51,154 nt of DNA. Source: Cryomorpha ignava (GTDB lineage Bacteria; Bacteroidota; Bacteroidia; Flavobacteriales_D; Cryomorphaceae). Below the pieces are notes generated by a model. That model was given only the letters and a program-made list of their open reading frames with translations. It was not told the DNA's origin and made no database searches. The position numbers and the translations under genes were made by a program. How positions within the stretch are numbered: position 1 is the stretch's first letter; each line of letters starts with the position of its first letter. Shown here piece by piece: positions 10,669 to 47,931 of this stretch. The DNA lies in contig NZ_JAAGVY010000037.1 of assembly GCF_010686655.1 (NCBI RefSeq), positions 1-51,154 of the forward strand. The letters are read 5' to 3'.

Positions 10669-11708
10669 TTCTTATAAACGCGTGTTATTTGGTCTTTTCC
10701 ATAAGTTTCGGTTATGCCTGTTGGCGAATTGATTTCCGGAGCTTTGAGACCGGAGTCCAATCTGTTTTCAGATTGAATTATACGAGCCTCATCCCAAAGG
10801 TTATTTGCGATAAACGTATTCAAAGTCTCTGCTCCACCCTCAACCAAAACACTCGAGATTCCCTTTTCGGAAAGATCGCTCAAGGCATTTTCCAATAAAT
10901 CATTTTCAAATTTTATCCACTCCGCATTTCCGTTTTTCTTTGCTATCCGTGAGTTGTAAATCAATGTTGAATTTCCATCTGTCAAAACGTTTGAATCGTT
11001 TGGAAGATTTCCCGAATTGCTAAGCACAACCCGCAGGGGAGAAGCGCCGGCTACTTCTCGCGTGTCAAGACGTGGATTATCGTTTATTATGGTATTTCTG
11101 CCAACAAGTATCGCTTGTTCCTGGCTGCGCCAAAGGTGAACGAGTTTCTTTGTTGCCGGATTCGAAATCCAATTTATTTTTGGATCATCGGCGACATTTC
11201 TATCTCTGTCCATAAACCCATCTGCCGATTGCGCCCACTTTAAAATAATGTACGGGCGGTTCTTTCTTTGATGCATTAGAAATCTTCTGTTTAAAAACTC
11301 CGCTTCCGCTTCACAAATTCCTTCTATCACTTCAATACCGGCAGCTTGCATCCGTTCTATTCCGCGTCCGGCAACTTTTGGGTTGGGGTCGCGCTGCGCC
11401 ACCACAACTTTCGGAATTTTTGATGAAATGATCAAATCGGCACAAGGAGGCGTTTTGCCAAAATGAGCACAGGGCTCCAGATTAACAAAGAGAGTAGATT
11501 CTTTAAGTAGGTCTTTATTTTTCAAGGCATTAATAGCATTCACTTCAGCATGCGGCCCACCGAAAATTTGATGATATCCCTCGGCTATAATCATGCCGTC
11601 ATGGACTATTAAGCTGCCCACCATGGGGTTTGGCGCAACACGCCCCAAGCCTTTTTCAGCCAACTCAATACAGCGAATCATGTAGGGTTTTAAATCCATT
11701 TCCGGCAA
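10665..11708 (-). CDS. ribD: bifunctional riboflavin deaminase/reductase RibD
   Basis: 347 residues catalysing two steps of riboflavin synthesis: deamination of diaminohydroxyphosphoribosylaminopyrimidine and NADPH reduction of the ribosyl side chain. The N-terminal deaminase domain has the zinc set GGPHAEVNAI (His53, Glu55) and PCAHFGKTPPC (Cys80, Cys89). The C-terminal reductase domain (from about residue 150) includes NRPYIILKWAQSADGFM and VEGGAETLNTF. A start at MDLKPYM, three codons later, is equally plausible. It is the first gene of the minus-strand operon, and its upstream side is the 189 bp repeat region. Confidence 0.95.
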   Translation of the reverse strand: MPEMDLKPYMIRCIELAEKGLGRVAPNPMVGSLIVHDGMIIAEGYHQIFGGPHAEVNAINALKNKDLLKESTLFVNLEPCAHFGKTPPCADLIISSKIPKVVVAQRDPNPKVAGRGIERMQAAGIEVIEGICEAEAEFLNRRFLMHQRKNRPYIILKWAQSADGFMDRDRNVADDPKINWISNPATKKLVHLWRSQEQAILVGRNTIINDNPRLDTREVAGASPLRVVLSNSGNLPNDSNVLTDGNSTLIYNSRIAKKNGNAEWIKFENDLLENALSDLSEKGISSVLVEGGAETLNTFIANNLWDEARIIQSENRLDSGLKAPEINSPTGITETYGKDQITRVYKK

Positions 11709-11766
11709 AGTAAATTATTAAATGGGAATTGAGAGGATGTTGCTGGGAAAGTTTTGTTTCTTTTAA

Positions 11767-11794
11767 CCGCACTCCGCACTCCGCACTCCGCAGT
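11767..11794. repeat. heptanucleotide tandem repeat, 4 units of CCGCACT
   Basis: CCGCACT occurs three times in a row, followed by CCGCAGT, with an exact period of 7. It joins straight into the 189 bp tandem repeat, whose second copy also begins CACTCCGC. The unit is GC-rich, unlike the other heptamer arrays of the window. Confidence 0.8.
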
Positions 11795-12162
11795 CGCTCC
11801 GCCTCTGGCGAGGGACGCATCGTCCGGCGTCCCGCCGGGTTCCTTTGAATAACATTTGTTGTTTGCCCGTTTTGAACGTTATACATCAGCTTGGAATGAT
11901 CAAATTCATTTTGATCATGGTTTGCCTGGCGGGACGCCAGATGAAGACAGCCTCGCGAGACACGAGCCTGTGCACTCCGCCGTCGCTGCGCCTCTGGCGA
12001 GGGACGCTTCTTCCGGCGTCTCGCCGGGTTTCTTCGGATAGCATTTATTGTTTGCCCGTTTGGAACGTTATACATCAGCTTGGTATGATCAAATTCATTT
12101 TGATCATGGCTTGCCTGGCGGGACGCCAGATGAAAACAGCCTCGCGAGACACGAGCCTGTGC
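11783..12162. repeat. two tandem copies of a 189 bp GC-rich repeat
   Basis: Corresponding bases are exactly 189 apart (for example GCACTCCGC at 11783 and 11972, GCCTGTGC ending at 11973 and 12162), with about 90% identity by eye. Each unit holds three hairpin-forming elements: GGCGAGGGACGC against GCGTCCCGCC, TGATCAAATTCA against TTTGATCA, and CTGGCG-gga-CGCCAG. Because 189 is a multiple of 3, the minus strand carries a repeated open frame of 63 codons per unit, and the plus strand is also largely open. No convincing start signal or family is visible, so I do not call it a gene. The rest of 11709-12325 shows nothing clear. Confidence 0.9.
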
Positions 12163-12325
12163 TAAGGCTACCATTCTCCTCTGCGCCCTTTGCGTAAAAC
12201 CTTCGCGTCTTATCGGTTAATAGCGCCACGCACATTCCCATTCCGTTAATTCTGTGTAAAACCAATAACCTATTCTCTGTTTCGTGAGTTTTTCCTTGTA
12301 ATTTTGCTTCAATGCAATACCCAAT

Positions 12326-44202: not shown

Positions 44203-45438
44203 TTATTGTTTTACAAATTTCATTGCAATCTGCCCTCCAACACCTTGAATTTGAATAAAATAGAATCCCTGTGAAAGTTCAGAAACATCAATTTGAGTTT
44301 TGGATTGGGTGATAGCTTCAAGCCTTAACCGCTTTCCGGAATAATCAAATATTGTAAGATAGGAGTTATCATATTGACTGAAATTTTCAATCTCTAAAGT
44401 CAGCTTTTCTCTGGTCGGGTTGGGGTAAATCGAAATCCCATCGGTAGCCGATATATCCTCAATAGCAGTGGGATTCACACTTTTCCAGGTTTCTTTTAGT
44501 CGTACATTTTCATGACTAATCCCTGTAGTGTAATAGATGTTCGTGCCATCATTAAAGCATATTCCTCCTTTTCTTCCAAATGAGGGTAGCGCATCAAGTT
44601 GTTCCCAGATCAATAAATTGAGATTGAAGCGCCACATATCGTTGTAATAATCGCCCATAACATCAACACCACCTATTACAATCAAATTATTTGGCAATGA
44701 ACTCAATGTTGAATGGCTTCTGCCGAAATTTGGAAATTCGCCGAGTTCTGTCCAGGAATCCGAAATAGGATCATATTCATATAATTCATTGTAAAATAGG
44801 TTATTCTCATCTTTGCCAAAAATTAAATACCCCTTACCATTGTTAGCTGAAGCTGAAGCCCGAAACATCGACCCAAAAGGTAAATCATTTTTTTGTTGCC
44901 AGGTATCGTTAGTAATTTCATAAGCCCAGACTTCATTTATGGCATCGCTTAAATTGGTTTTGCCGCCAATGATATAGGCCACGTTATCAATTACAAAACA
45001 GGCTGATCCGCTTCTTCCTATTGCTGGCAGACTTGATTTTTCAACCCAATTGTTTAATTCCGGATCGTATTGCCAAAGGTCACTTAAGTAAACTCCCCCC
45101 TTAACGCCTCCAAAAACAAAACCATGCGTAGATGACGAAAACCCTGATGCATATTGTCTTTCATTTCCATCGGGCAAAGAGGCGATCGGTTCCCACGTAT
45201 CTGCATTCATGCTAAATGCATAAAAATCTTTGGTTTCAGACCAGCCTACTTGTAAACCCGTTCCGCAATAGGCTGTGTTGTCAATTACAAAAGAAGCACC
45301 GTCATCTCTTTCTGTTGATGGGAAATCTGAAACCTGAATCCATGATTGAGAATGGCTGCCTAGAACACAAATAATTGCTATGTATGAGAGTATAATCTTA
45401 CGATTGCAGAGTTGCTTTATTAGAATTGACATGAACAA
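44203..45438 (-). CDS. Kelch-repeat secreted protein with T9SS sorting domain
   Basis: 411 residues with a signal peptide (ending GSHSQS near residue 31) and five to six Kelch repeats forming a beta-propeller. Repeat signatures: YIIGGKTNLSDAINEVWAYE, NDTWQQKNDLPFGSMFRASA, LIVIGGVDVMGDYYNDMWRF. The last about 80 residues are a T9SS type A domain with ISIYPNPTREKLTLEI and the ending IAMKFVKQ. The propeller probably binds carbohydrate or protein outside the cell. It converges with the amylase gene 16 nt away. A start at the third codon (MSILIKQ) is also possible. Confidence 0.88.
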   Translation of the reverse strand: MFMSILIKQLCNRKIILSYIAIICVLGSHSQSWIQVSDFPSTERDDGASFVIDNTAYCGTGLQVGWSETKDFYAFSMNADTWEPIASLPDGNERQYASGFSSSTHGFVFGGVKGGVYLSDLWQYDPELNNWVEKSSLPAIGRSGSACFVIDNVAYIIGGKTNLSDAINEVWAYEITNDTWQQKNDLPFGSMFRASASANNGKGYLIFGKDENNLFYNELYEYDPISDSWTELGEFPNFGRSHSTLSSLPNNLIVIGGVDVMGDYYNDMWRFNLNLLIWEQLDALPSFGRKGGICFNDGTNIYYTTGISHENVRLKETWKSVNPTAIEDISATDGISIYPNPTREKLTLEIENFSQYDNSYLTIFDYSGKRLRLEAITQSKTQIDVSELSQGFYFIQIQGVGGQIAMKFVKQ

Positions 45439-45498: not shown

Positions 45499-46098
45499 TT
45501 ATTGTTGGCCGCTACCACTTCCATTTTTAATCAGCTTAGACCGTTTACTAAGCAACGCCGCTCTTTTTGACCTCTTCTCTTCAGTATCTAATTTCAGATC
45601 AATTTCTTTTATCTCATTTTTAAGATCTATAAACGCTTTGCTTTTCGAGTATTCAGCCAGCCACTCTGAAAATTCAGGAAATGATTCTTTCTTGTAGCCA
45701 AAATACTTAATGAGCACCTCAATTGGCCAATTGTTACTTGAGCGAATATGTTCAATTGATTTCGGATCTAAAAAGTAGTCAATCAAATACTCGTTTAAAA
45801 AGTGCGCCTGAATTATTTGAGTTTTTGCTCTCTCAACTCTTTTTGTTTTATAGAGTGTCAGTGAATATTGAAACCAGAATAGCGGCGATCCAACATCATC
45901 TGAAAAATGCTTATCGAACCAATTAAAATATCTTAAAGCACCCGTATAATCTTCCAGTTTTATATAGAGTTCGGGTTGTACATACCTGAGGCCACCACCA
46001 TCATGATAGTATCCGCCCCAGTGTTTTTTATCTGCGGCCAGTGCTTTTTTAATCTTTGCGATTTTAGCTCTGACTCTTTTTTCTTGATTTTCGGTCAT
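45499..46098 (-). CDS. hypothetical soluble protein, helical with TPR-like features
   Basis: 199 residues, mostly helical. The middle (ALRYFNWFDKHFSDDVGSPL, then FQYSLTLYKTKRVERAKTQI) looks like a tetratricopeptide-type pair. The C-terminus is a charged coiled coil (NEIKEIDLKLDTEEKRSKRA) ending in a Gly-Ser tail. No signal peptide. It lies 59 nt downstream of the tail-sheath gene on the same strand, so it may be expressed with it. I cannot assign it to a known contractile-system part. Confidence 0.55.
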   Translation of the reverse strand: MTENQEKRVRAKIAKIKKALAADKKHWGGYYHDGGGLRYVQPELYIKLEDYTGALRYFNWFDKHFSDDVGSPLFWFQYSLTLYKTKRVERAKTQIIQAHFLNEYLIDYFLDPKSIEHIRSSNNWPIEVLIKYFGYKKESFPEFSEWLAEYSKSKAFIDLKNEIKEIDLKLDTEEKRSKRAALLSKRSKLIKNGSGSGQQ

Positions 46099-46157: not shown

Positions 46158-47564
46158 TTAAGATTTCTGCATTTTAAGGGAGAATCTTAGATTAATGAAT
46201 TCAGCTGGTCTTACCGGAGCAAGTCCTATTTCCACTATCAAGTTTCCTTCCTGTGTGTCATAAGCAGTCATGGTTTGTCCCAGGCCAACATTTACAAAAT
46301 ATGCATGTTCGGGTTTGGCACCGCCAAGAGCCCCGGCTCGCCAAAGGGTATTGAGGTAGTTTTCTATCATTGCCTTTATTTTTATCCAGGTATTCGCATC
46401 ATTCGGTTCAAAAACAAAGCGCTCTGAAGCTTTTTTGACAGATTTTTCTACCATGTTAAAGAAACGGCGCACTGAGATGTATCTCCACTCATTGTCATTT
46501 CCAGCCAGCGTGCGGGCACCCCAAATCATAACTCCTTGCCCTACAAAGCTTCGAATGGCATTGATCGATTTTCCGGTGGAGCTAATATTGAGATCGGCTT
46601 GTTCCATGTCATTAATTTTTAGCGTAGGAGCCATTACCTTGTTAAGTGAAACATTGGCTGGAGCCTTCCACACGCCTCTGGAATTGTCAACTCGGGTGTA
46701 AGCACCTGCAACGGCAGCGCTGGGTGGCAATTCAAGCTTGATGCCATCTATGATTTTCTTTATTTCGAGATACAAATCCTTATACTTTCCATCATCTTTA
46801 TGATACAGAGATGACTCATTTTTATTCGGATCCTCCAAAATAGACTCTTCTCTATGCCTTAATACATGTTTCTCATCGTTTAACATCACCTTTATTTTAT
46901 CATCAGCAGAGGTATAAGTGAGGGTTGTAAGCAATGAAGGAAAGTAAGCTGCGCCATATTTTAAATCATTCATGCCAATGGCAAACCGGAACTCAATCGC
47001 AGATTCTGAAATCGTATTTGTTTGTTTTTTAGACTCTTCAACATCGCAGATAAGGAAGCGGTCTTTCCTTTTTGCACATTGGGCAAGTGCTGCCTTGTAC
47101 AATTCTGCAGGCTCTTCACTGTTTTTGCGGCTGGCTGCATCAGGAAAGACGATCAAAGTTGGTAAATCTTCTTCATCGAGCAGACTGAGACCTTCGATCA
47201 TTGCTTGGTTTTTTACGGTGTCCTTTCCATCGTCATAATTTCCCACGGATATGATGAAGCAATCGCCACCCCCATTGGCAAAAAACATTTCGAGCATATA
47301 AAACATTCTATAGGTCGGAGTGGTCCATATTTTCGGGGCAGTAATTATTCTGTTTTTGTTTATTTCAAATTTCCCAATTTCCTTTTGAAAAGGTCCTCCG
47401 AAACCATTTCTATATTCTGTGATAGACCTCATCCTGGTTGGCACATTAGTCCCTTTTTCTGTATATCCTATAAATGCGGGAATGGCTGTCTCCACTTGAG
47501 CAACCGAAGGGGGGAGGCTGGAAATCTCATTGATGTAAACTCCGGGTGTTTTGTATTTGGCCAT
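46158..47564 (-). CDS. phage-type contractile tail sheath protein
   Basis: 468 residues. It opens KYKTPGVYINEISSLPPSVA, the standard start of sheath proteins of contractile tails, including phage-derived particles and extracellular contractile injection systems; VETAIPAFIGYTEKG follows. The C-terminal domain carries MIWGARTLAGNDNEWRYISV, VRRFFNMVEKSVKKASERFV and the last strands GLAPVRPAEFINLRFSLKMQ, which interlock neighbouring subunits. The protein is full length with no lesion. No tube, baseplate, spike or ATPase gene is found within the window, so its partners must be elsewhere. Confidence 0.9.
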   Translation of the reverse strand: MAKYKTPGVYINEISSLPPSVAQVETAIPAFIGYTEKGTNVPTRMRSITEYRNGFGGPFQKEIGKFEINKNRIITAPKIWTTPTYRMFYMLEMFFANGGGDCFIISVGNYDDGKDTVKNQAMIEGLSLLDEEDLPTLIVFPDAASRKNSEEPAELYKAALAQCAKRKDRFLICDVEESKKQTNTISESAIEFRFAIGMNDLKYGAAYFPSLLTTLTYTSADDKIKVMLNDEKHVLRHREESILEDPNKNESSLYHKDDGKYKDLYLEIKKIIDGIKLELPPSAAVAGAYTRVDNSRGVWKAPANVSLNKVMAPTLKINDMEQADLNISSTGKSINAIRSFVGQGVMIWGARTLAGNDNEWRYISVRRFFNMVEKSVKKASERFVFEPNDANTWIKIKAMIENYLNTLWRAGALGGAKPEHAYFVNVGLGQTMTAYDTQEGNLIVEIGLAPVRPAEFINLRFSLKMQKS

Positions 47565-47931
47565 ACCGATGGGTTATTGGTTAATTGTCAGTAAATACTT
47601 ATCATTTTCACTTTTACTCACTTGATAATAAGGCGTAGAAGTACCTTTTATATCTACGTTTCAAGTTTCTAAATTAATAAACCATCCCCGGTTTCCGCCA
47701 TTTTTATTTCAGAATATATCCAATTGAAGAAAGTTGGGATTTGCTGTTAATTACTCGTCACTGTTTGAAAAAGGGTTAAATATGGAGCGTTGCCTTTCAC
47801 CACAGTGTGAGGAGGTTTAGACTTGGGTACAAAACGATGGAGCAATAAAATCAATTTGACCACAAAGTTGAAACCACATAGTAAATCATGAGAAAATAAC
47901 ACTACTTTTGCGCCCGCAAATAAATTTTGAC
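47565..47931. promoter_or_regulatory. divergent intergenic region with promoter TACTTTTG
   Basis: 367 nt between the sheath gene and the J-domain gene. TACTTTTG at 47903-47910 is the -7 element for the plus-strand gene, 21 nt before its ATG; the upstream TTG-like element is not clear. I see no hairpin or gene in the rest. Confidence 0.5.

What the first reader, a model, noticed from the sequence alone, without database searches (positions are those of the whole stretch)
46158..47564. Orphan contractile tail-sheath gene
A full-length, undamaged sheath gene stands next to a TPR-like gene of unknown role and a Kelch/T9SS gene, with no tube, baseplate, spike or AAA+ gene in the window. Sheaths work only as part of a multi-gene particle. 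A solitary intact one may supply a distant locus with an alternative sheath, or have a new use as a structural polymer.
Basis: partly seen in the sequence, partly recalled or inferred. Interest (0 to 1): 0.55.

Follow-up and report, generated by a model that had tools for sequence, protein, structure and literature searches.

The report
Lone injection-machine sheath gene
This bacterium carries an intact gene for the contractile outer sleeve of a phage-tail-like injection machine but almost none of the rest of the machine, and the same stripped-down state turns up again in some related bacteria, which suggests that the sleeve protein may have a use of its own.

Summary
[quoted passage not shown] No eCIS baseplate J, gp25, LysM/CIS_tube or Pvc16 gene was found there; one tube gene stands alone on another contig; a T6SS has its own sheath.

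Lone sheaths recur. In a phylum sample 89 of 395 genomes matched the sheath profile; 10 of the 89, this one included, hold a full-length sheath with no other eCIS gene in the stretch examined. The order sample added one. These 11 need 10 changes on a sheath tree; the 10 others have no tube match. One pair shares its locus and stayed intact beyond neutral expectation. One site with an eCIS in one species holds only a sheath in a congener.

Best reading: a sheath kept by selection after the injector was lost, probably a tube-free polymer (inferred). Main rival: piecemeal decay, which two genomes seem to show.

The parts
46158..47564 (-). Lone eCIS-type contractile sheath gene, 468 aa (P0001)
   Evidence: sole sheath match in the genome; 81 of 84 residues conserved in 109 clustered sheaths kept
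45499..46098 (-). 199-aa TPR-like gene (P0002), 59 bases downstream on the same strand; possibly co-transcribed, but not linked to sheaths elsewhere
   Evidence: homologues in 6 of 399 order genomes, the 5 others in unrelated surroundings
44203..45438 (-). Kelch-repeat gene with T9SS C-terminal sorting domain, 60 bases further downstream; no evidence that it belongs to the sheath
47565..47907 (-). 343-base intergenic stretch upstream of the sheath, shared with a divergent DnaJ-KTSC gene; presumed promoter region
   Evidence: no match to the Bacteroidota-type promoter pattern tried there

Best explanation
The gene is a stand-alone sheath left by the loss of an eCIS and kept by selection because the sheath protein is useful without the injector. 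Its nearest kin is the short first sheath of two-sheath eCIS clusters found in another class of the phylum. Most likely the protein self-assembles through its terminal arms into a tube-free, polysheath-like or rhapidosome-like cytoplasmic polymer, with no injection because baseplate and cap genes are missing. Shown by tools: intact gene; sole sheath match; missing J, gp25 (outside the T6SS), LysM and Pvc16 genes; lone sheaths on about ten separate branches of the sheath tree; no tube match in 10 of 10 other lone-sheath genomes; purifying selection in one syntenic pair; one site where a congener of an eCIS carrier holds only a sheath. Inferred: that selection acts on this copy as a single gene, that it polymerises, where it does so, and what the polymer is for. 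Whether the lone tube P0003 takes part is open.
For: Sole sheath match at E 0.1. No CIS_tube, Pvc16 or baseplate J match; the only gp25 lies in a T6SS. A related cluster scores over cut-off with the same Pfam models, and the J profile finds G233 and G300. Phylum sample: 10 of 89 sheath-bearing genomes hold a full-length sheath with no other eCIS gene in 13.5-14 kb, or for the window in its 51 kb; G150 from the order sample is the eleventh, in 20 kb. The 11 lone rows need 10 changes on the tree, 7 forced by well-supported branches. PF06841: no match in 10 of 10 lone-sheath genomes other than this one; control G233 gives 8. G472/G507: lone sheaths at one locus, 60% identical, dN 0.31, dS saturated; 0 of 1000 neutral simulations stayed open, mean 18.5 stops. 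G504 against G599: one site, both flanks shared, an eCIS cluster in one and only a sheath in the other. No relics of other eCIS genes beside the 11 full-length lone sheaths. T4 and phiKZ sheaths assemble without tube or baseplate (PMC6088184, passage).
Against: No other genome of the family has this sheath (1 of 8), so selection on this copy as a lone gene is untested. This genome, unlike the other ten, has an intact tube gene. G431 (lone tube, sheath only as a ~160-aa C-terminal piece) and G534 (lone tube, sheath in two ORFs) look like piecemeal decay. Lone sheaths have lost more core residues than clustered ones and have longer end branches, as relaxed constraint would give. Baseplate genes were not searched genome-wide in nine of the ten other lone-sheath genomes. 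No polymer has been seen, and the structure prediction failed (mean pLDDT 33).
Confidence: 0.45

Rival explanations
1. Relic in slow decay: the eCIS was lost or broken up, and sheath and tube are the last intact pieces, with no present function.
For: The genome keeps two unlinked intact pieces, sheath on C37 and tube on C2. G431 and G534 show a lone tube with a truncated or split sheath. The window sheath lies further from its shared node than its clustered kin on average, 0.49 against 0.29. Absent from the 7 other genomes of the family searched.
Against: The ORF is full-length and 81 of 84 core residues are kept. No relics of other eCIS genes near either piece. The G472/G507 lone pair is under purifying selection. 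Composition is genome-like, so the gene does not look newly arrived.
Confidence: 0.33
2. Two-part tail: P0001 and the unlinked tube P0003 together form a sheathed tube with no baseplate, used as a contractile or structural rod.
For: Exactly one sheath and one tube of eCIS type were found, both intact. P0003's best matches include tubes of the f35 clusters whose short sheath is P0001's nearest kin (59-61%). G622 has a unit of one sheath and two tubes with no other eCIS gene within about 6 kb.
Against: The genes are unlinked; 10 of 10 other lone-sheath genomes have no tube match. The tube tree does not resolve P0003's origin. P0003 keeps 25 of 30 conserved tube residues, third lowest of 30 rows.
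Confidence: 0.12
3. Dispersed but complete injector: the remaining parts exist elsewhere in the genome, too divergent for the models used, or in assembly gaps.
For: Assembly of 149 contigs. Spike, PAAR, cap adaptor and AAA+ genes of eCIS type were not searched genome-wide. The built-in control genomes of the Pvc16 search were empty.
Against: No match for gp25 outside the T6SS, CIS_tube, Pvc16 or J, though a related cluster scores well over cut-off with the Pfam models.
Confidence: 0.07
4. Accessory sheath for the T6SS on contig C12, or for another distant contractile system.
For: A T6SS cluster exists.
Against: It has its own two-part TssB/TssC sheath, while P0001 is a one-part eCIS sheath.
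Confidence: 0.03

Closest known systems
   Same: Up to 67% identity; one set of 8 rows, SH-aLRT 99; similar length
   Different: There it lies between a Pvc16-type gene and a long sheath; in G567, G599 and G623 tubes, LysM, spike, gp25 and J follow (the contigs of G732 and G515 end earlier). Here it stands alone
AlgoCIS sheath Alg2 (7adz) and All3325 (7b5h)
   Same: One-part eCIS sheaths; P0001 1-226 and 257-468 align to the 7adz chain, 3-468 to All3325
   Different: AlgoCIS is a whole particle and Alg2 has extra outer domains III and IV (PMC8894135, passages); the 7adz chain is 692 aa, P0001 468. That All3325 belongs to an Anabaena injector is recalled
SCFP of Saprospira; rhapidosomes
   Same: A phage-tail-sheath protein reported to form cytoplasmic fibrils in a Bacteroidetes bacterium (PMC3486910, passage); rhapidosomes are discussed beside eCIS in PMC8910223 (passage)
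   Different: PMC4122934 (passage) says the gene clusters for the fibrils appear related to Afp/PVC; no lone gene is described in what I saw. The primary paper was not available and the SCFP sequence was not compared
T4 and phiKZ polysheaths
   Same: Sheath protein assembling without tube or baseplate (PMC6088184, passage)
   Different: Described there as spontaneous self-assembly in vitro into irreversibly contracted polysheaths, not as the role of a lone gene; in the same paper the diffocin sheath stayed monomeric

Membership tests
eCIS-type sheath protein | Phage_sheath_1 and Phage_sheath_1C domains over cut-off | tested here: met
   (36.9 and 61.5 bits)
eCIS-type sheath protein | Near-full-length alignment, N- and C-terminal arms included, to eCIS sheaths | tested here: met
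   81 of 84 conserved residues kept
Functional eCIS | Tube gene in the genome | tested here: met
   One lone tube gene, P0003, on contig C2
Functional eCIS | Baseplate gp25 and J-type proteins | tested here: not met
   gp25 only in the T6SS; no J match
Functional eCIS | LysM/CIS_tube protein | tested here: not met
   PF19266: no match in the own genome; a related cluster scores 148.8 bits
Functional eCIS | Pvc16-type tail terminator | tested here: not met
   PF14065: no match (whose built-in control genomes were also empty); a related cluster scores 112.7 bits
Functional eCIS | Spike/hub, PAAR tip, cap adaptor and AAA+ ATPase of eCIS type | not tested
   Not searched genome-wide; no spike match in the window
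Type VI secretion system | Two-part TssB/TssC sheath inside a T6SS cluster | tested here: not met
   P0001 is one-part and on another contig; the T6SS has its own TssB/TssC
Prophage tail | Phage genes alongside, or near-full-length phage relatives | tested here: not met
   1191 phage records match, 0 with a place covering 80% of the query; highest identity among the 10 rows listed 35.1%; of 8 genes at this end of the window scanned with Pfam only the sheath is phage-like
Rhapidosome / cytoplasmic-fibril protein (SCFP-like) | Forms tube-free tubules or fibrils in the cell | not testable with these tools
   Needs electron microscopy

The most novel reading that the evidence does not exclude
In this phylum eCIS sheaths have repeatedly been turned into stand-alone, tube-free cytoplasmic polymers: whole injectors were deleted around them while the sheath alone was kept, mostly evolved faster, and changed at shared positions (above all Leu438). 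The window gene is one of these: a one-gene, cytoskeleton-like or contractile polymer derived from an injection machine.
Probability: 0.3. Interest if true: 0.85.

Novelty: new variant of a known kind. Interest (0 to 1): 0.6.

Why it matters
Contractile sheaths are treated as parts that make sense only inside an injector, and the eCIS surveys seen here look for multi-gene loci: PMC12210884 excluded candidates lacking baseplate, tube or sheath-initiator genes (passage), and PMC8213781 works with operons of many genes (passages). A single sheath gene falls below such filters. If lone sheaths are kept by selection, they are natural one-component versions of a machine whose assembly and contraction are otherwise hard to separate from the rest. 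They could also give the old observations of rhapidosomes and cytoplasmic fibrils a genetic explanation that is testable by deleting one gene.

Tried and rejected
Second eCIS elsewhere in the genome: not found. Prophage: not supported. Recent arrival: composition is like that of the window (sheath GC 0.419, GC3 0.403; window GC 0.398). eCIS-type sheaths do occur on plasmids (123 of 72,556 records); the two opened lie beside tube and baseplate genes. Mobile elements around the window were not searched for as such.

Link to the 199-aa neighbour: homologues in 6 of 399 order genomes, itself included; the other 5 stand in unrelated surroundings; 4 plasmid records, hypothetical proteins; no viral-contig relative. 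A coincidence noted, not pressed: G150, the other full-length lone-sheath genome of the order sample, is one of the 6, with a copy that has an in-frame stop on another contig.

Sheath and tube from one donor: the sheath points to family f35; the tube tree of 188 rows does not resolve P0003. Undecided.

Leu438 as a sign of lost tube contact: lost in 8 of 11 lone sheaths against 3 of 109 clustered (Poisson p 1.3e-5, one of 109 columns tested, not corrected for kinship). Sister pairs on well-supported branches average 4.7 for and 0.0 against, sign test median p 0.0625. Phe461 is lost in 6 of 11 against 2 of 109 (pairs 2.6 to 0.1). Where these residues lie in the particle could not be established from what was read. 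Left as a lead. The lower core-residue retention of lone sheaths is partly built in, because columns were chosen by conservation in clustered rows.

Structure prediction from a two-row alignment: useless (mean pLDDT 33); no fold search was run. Promoter-pattern scan: 3 matches in the window against 4.0 expected, none before the sheath. The genome-contig scan gave one locus because the peptide patterns chosen were poor. NCBIfam and PADLOC: no match for P0001 or P0002. Paper search listed only unrelated medical papers. In the tree row L111 (the G541 lone sheath) was mislabelled 'cluster', and the retention and rate tests use the corrected label.

Full report
What is there. Window 46158-47564, minus strand, encodes an intact 468-aa sheath. 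Pfam, PHROGs and solved structures agree on a contractile-tail sheath; the best solved relatives are the 7adz chain (AlgoCIS, PMC8894135, passage) and All3325. Downstream on the same strand follow a 199-aa TPR-like gene (gap 59 bases) and a Kelch/T9SS gene (gap 60 bases, its start being uncertain); upstream lies a divergent DnaJ-KTSC gene. The window is a whole contig of a 5,006,455-base, 149-contig assembly rated 99.85% complete; the contig ends 3,590 bases upstream of the sheath. The tools name neither organism nor phylum; I take it for Bacteroidota (inference, helped by the T9SS sorting domains).

The rest of the genome. P0001 is the only sheath at E 0.1 or better. One tube gene of the T4 gp19 family exists, P0003 on contig C2, 143 aa, between a gene with an Mrr-type endonuclease domain and what I read as a zinc alcohol dehydrogenase (recalled). 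No other eCIS gene was found in the 20 kb around it. The only GPW_gp25 match lies on contig C12, in a type VI secretion cluster with VipA/TssB, TssC, a ClpB-type ATPase, a VgrG-type hub and TssF. CIS_tube/LysM, Pvc16 (whose built-in control genomes were also empty) and baseplate J gave no match. On proteins of a related cluster, G233 contig C117, the same models give gp25 76 bits, Pvc16 113, CIS_tube 149, tubes 133 and 154; the J profile found G233 and G300, whose sequences helped to build it or lie near it. Spike, PAAR, cap adaptor and AAA+ genes were not searched genome-wide.

The neighbour. P0002 homologues occur in 6 of 399 genomes of the order, itself included. The five others stand in unrelated surroundings without a sheath in the 14-20 kb fetched. 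The pairing in the window is not a conserved unit.

Recurrence, order sample. 30 of 299 genomes match P0001 at E 1e-5. Of the 29 others, 26 also have a tube match; adjacency was read off printed positions, not checked one by one. The three without are G150, with a lone full-length sheath (506 aa, 36.7% to P0001), G172, with a lone 153-aa sheath C-terminal domain, and G292, with two weak matches in very long frames, which I take for phage.

Recurrence, phylum sample. 89 of 395 genomes match the sheath profile at E 1e-10, own included. I looked at the surroundings of at least one sheath in each of the 89, with my own profiles for tube, LysM, spike, gp25, J, Pvc16 and sheath (for some only 1.5 kb of flank; for the window by tblastn). 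Result: 10 full-length lone sheaths (own, G472, G504, G507, G517, G541, G657, G662, G672, G731); 3 partial or split lone ones (G431, G534, G546); 1 with two tubes only (G622); 75 with at least one further eCIS-type gene, 5 of these (G428, G549, G575, G593, G660) with weak, divergent sheaths that may be phage. A second match in G570 (C25) and a broken fragment in G599 (C68) were not examined. Each of the ten shows one sheath match, though in several genomes only 4 of the first-look candidates were scored; G150 shows one. Several lie on long contigs, for example G657 (4.28 Mb) and G662 (1.8 Mb), so broken assembly does not explain them. The tube family has no match at E 0.1 in 10 of 10 lone-sheath genomes other than the own one; control G233 shows 8. 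Baseplate J was searched genome-wide, among lone-sheath genomes, only in G000, G150 and G172.

Origins. In a tree of 121 sheaths P0001 lies in a supported set of 8 (SH-aLRT 99) with short sheaths of family f35 clusters (67% to G515) and two other lone sheaths, G662 and G504. Cluster order in G567, G599 and G623 is Pvc16-type gene, short sheath, long sheath, tube, tube, LysM, spike, gp25, J. Eleven lone rows need 10 changes, at least 7 forced by well-supported branches, and are not clustered beyond shuffling (131 of 500 shuffles as low). So lone sheaths arose many times.

Selection. G472 and G507 (one genus) hold lone sheaths between matching neighbours (57%, 83% and 75% identical; I read them as an amidohydrolase, an aldose epimerase and a glycosidase-like gene, names recalled). 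The sheaths are 60% identical, dN 0.31, dS saturated. Codon positions differ at 32%, 20% and 58%; with half of the third-position divergence applied to one copy as neutral change, 0 of 1000 simulated genes stayed open, with 18.5 stops on average. Parsimony puts the lone state before their split; that step is inferred.

One site, two states. G504 (lone sheath) and G599 (same genus) share one site. On one side run what I read as rpsI, rpsB, tsf, pyrH, frr and an SMC gene, on the other a TPR-like lipoprotein gene, an M28 peptidase and a TonB-receptor gene (names recalled; matches; seven aligned genes 69-94% identical). Between SMC and the lipoprotein gene G599 carries about 28.7 kb with Pvc16, two sheaths, two tubes, LysM, spike, gp25 and J. 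G504 carries only a sheath: its start codon comes 12 bases after the upstream gene's stop and its stop is 3 bases from that of the SMC gene. It is 49% identical to G599's short sheath, dN 0.455 against 0.045-0.201 for the seven flanking genes; dS is saturated or very high throughout. That it is the same gene by descent is likely but not proved: its place beside G599 and G623 has SH-aLRT 80 and its branch is the longest (1.27). Retention by selection predicts this picture; a lucky deletion cannot be excluded in a single case.

Rates and residues, both ways. Lone sheaths have longer end branches (median 0.57 against 0.135, p 5e-5), but clustered rows include near-copies. In 7 of 11 the lone sheath lies further from the shared node than its clustered kin on average; in 4 it does not. 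They keep 87-99% of 84 core residues against a clustered median of 100% (p 3e-7, not corrected for kinship); P0001 keeps 81 of 84. Leu438 is lost in 8 of 11 against 3 of 109 clustered, suggestive only once kinship is allowed for. P0003 keeps 25 of 30 conserved tube residues. No relics of other eCIS genes were found beside the 11 full-length lone sheaths or beside P0003.

Results against the reading. G431 and G534 have a lone tube but only a ~160-aa sheath piece and a sheath in two ORFs: dispersed parts do decay. No other genome of the family has the sheath (1 of 8), so selection on this very copy is untested. Not every sheath self-assembles: the diffocin sheath stayed monomeric (PMC6088184, passage). 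No usable structure model was obtained.

How it most likely works. Sheath subunits link through N- and C-terminal arms (pyocin residues 2-24 and 361-386, PMC8195476, passage), and T4 and phiKZ sheaths form polysheaths without tube or baseplate (PMC6088184, passage). P0001 has both ends by alignment. I infer a tube-free polymer, possibly a cytoplasmic tubule of the SCFP or rhapidosome kind (PMC3486910 and PMC8910223, passages). It is not an injector as far as the genome shows.

Literature. Eight paper searches listed no paper whose title or abstract start describes lone eCIS sheath genes; only the held open library was searched, and only listings and passages were seen. 'Orphan' and 'rhapidosome' in the sheath-evolution paper PMC9230969 gave one unrelated hit and none. 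PMC12210884 states that candidates lacking baseplate, tube or sheath-initiator genes were excluded (passage).

Noticed in passing
G000 contig C2:239012-239443 (L035:9012-9443): Lone intact eCIS-type tube gene, 143 aa, the only one found in the genome, between an Mrr-type endonuclease gene and a dehydrogenase-like gene.
   Followed up: partly
L135 (G504); L197, L203, L204 (G599): One chromosomal site in one genus: about 28.7 kb with an eCIS cluster in G599, a single sheath gene in G504.
   Followed up: partly
L131:6190-7674 (G472) and L132:6244-7716 (G507): Syntenic lone sheaths in two genomes of one genus, both intact at 60% identity.
   Followed up: yes
L130:6287-8693 (G622): A small unit of one sheath and two tube genes with no other eCIS gene within about 6 kb.
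   Followed up: partly
L072:7929-8390 (G172) and L141:5873-6352 (G431): Free-standing sheath C-terminal domains of 153 and about 160 aa, with no other eCIS gene in the stretch fetched; a small TPR-like ORF lies near the first.
   Followed up: no
L142:5365-6288 (G546): One 308-aa frame with a Pvc16-like stretch (tblastn E 9e-6) followed by a sheath C-terminal stretch (E 7e-13); no Pfam match at E 0.001. Possibly a fusion of terminator and sheath.
   Followed up: no
L143 and L192 (G534): Lone sheath split over two ORFs (337 and 157 aa) and a lone tube on another contig.
   Followed up: no
window 45499-46098; L050 (G150): P0002 homologues are rare (6 of 399) yet present in both full-length lone-sheath genomes of the order sample, unlinked to the sheath in G150, where the copy has an in-frame stop. 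May be chance.
   Followed up: no
G000 contig C12 (L033): A T6SS cluster with TssB, TssC, ClpB-type ATPase, VgrG-type hub, gp25 and TssF.
   Followed up: partly
window 11665-12174: A 169-aa ORF in which a block of about 60 residues occurs twice; perhaps a DNA repeat rather than a gene.
   Followed up: no
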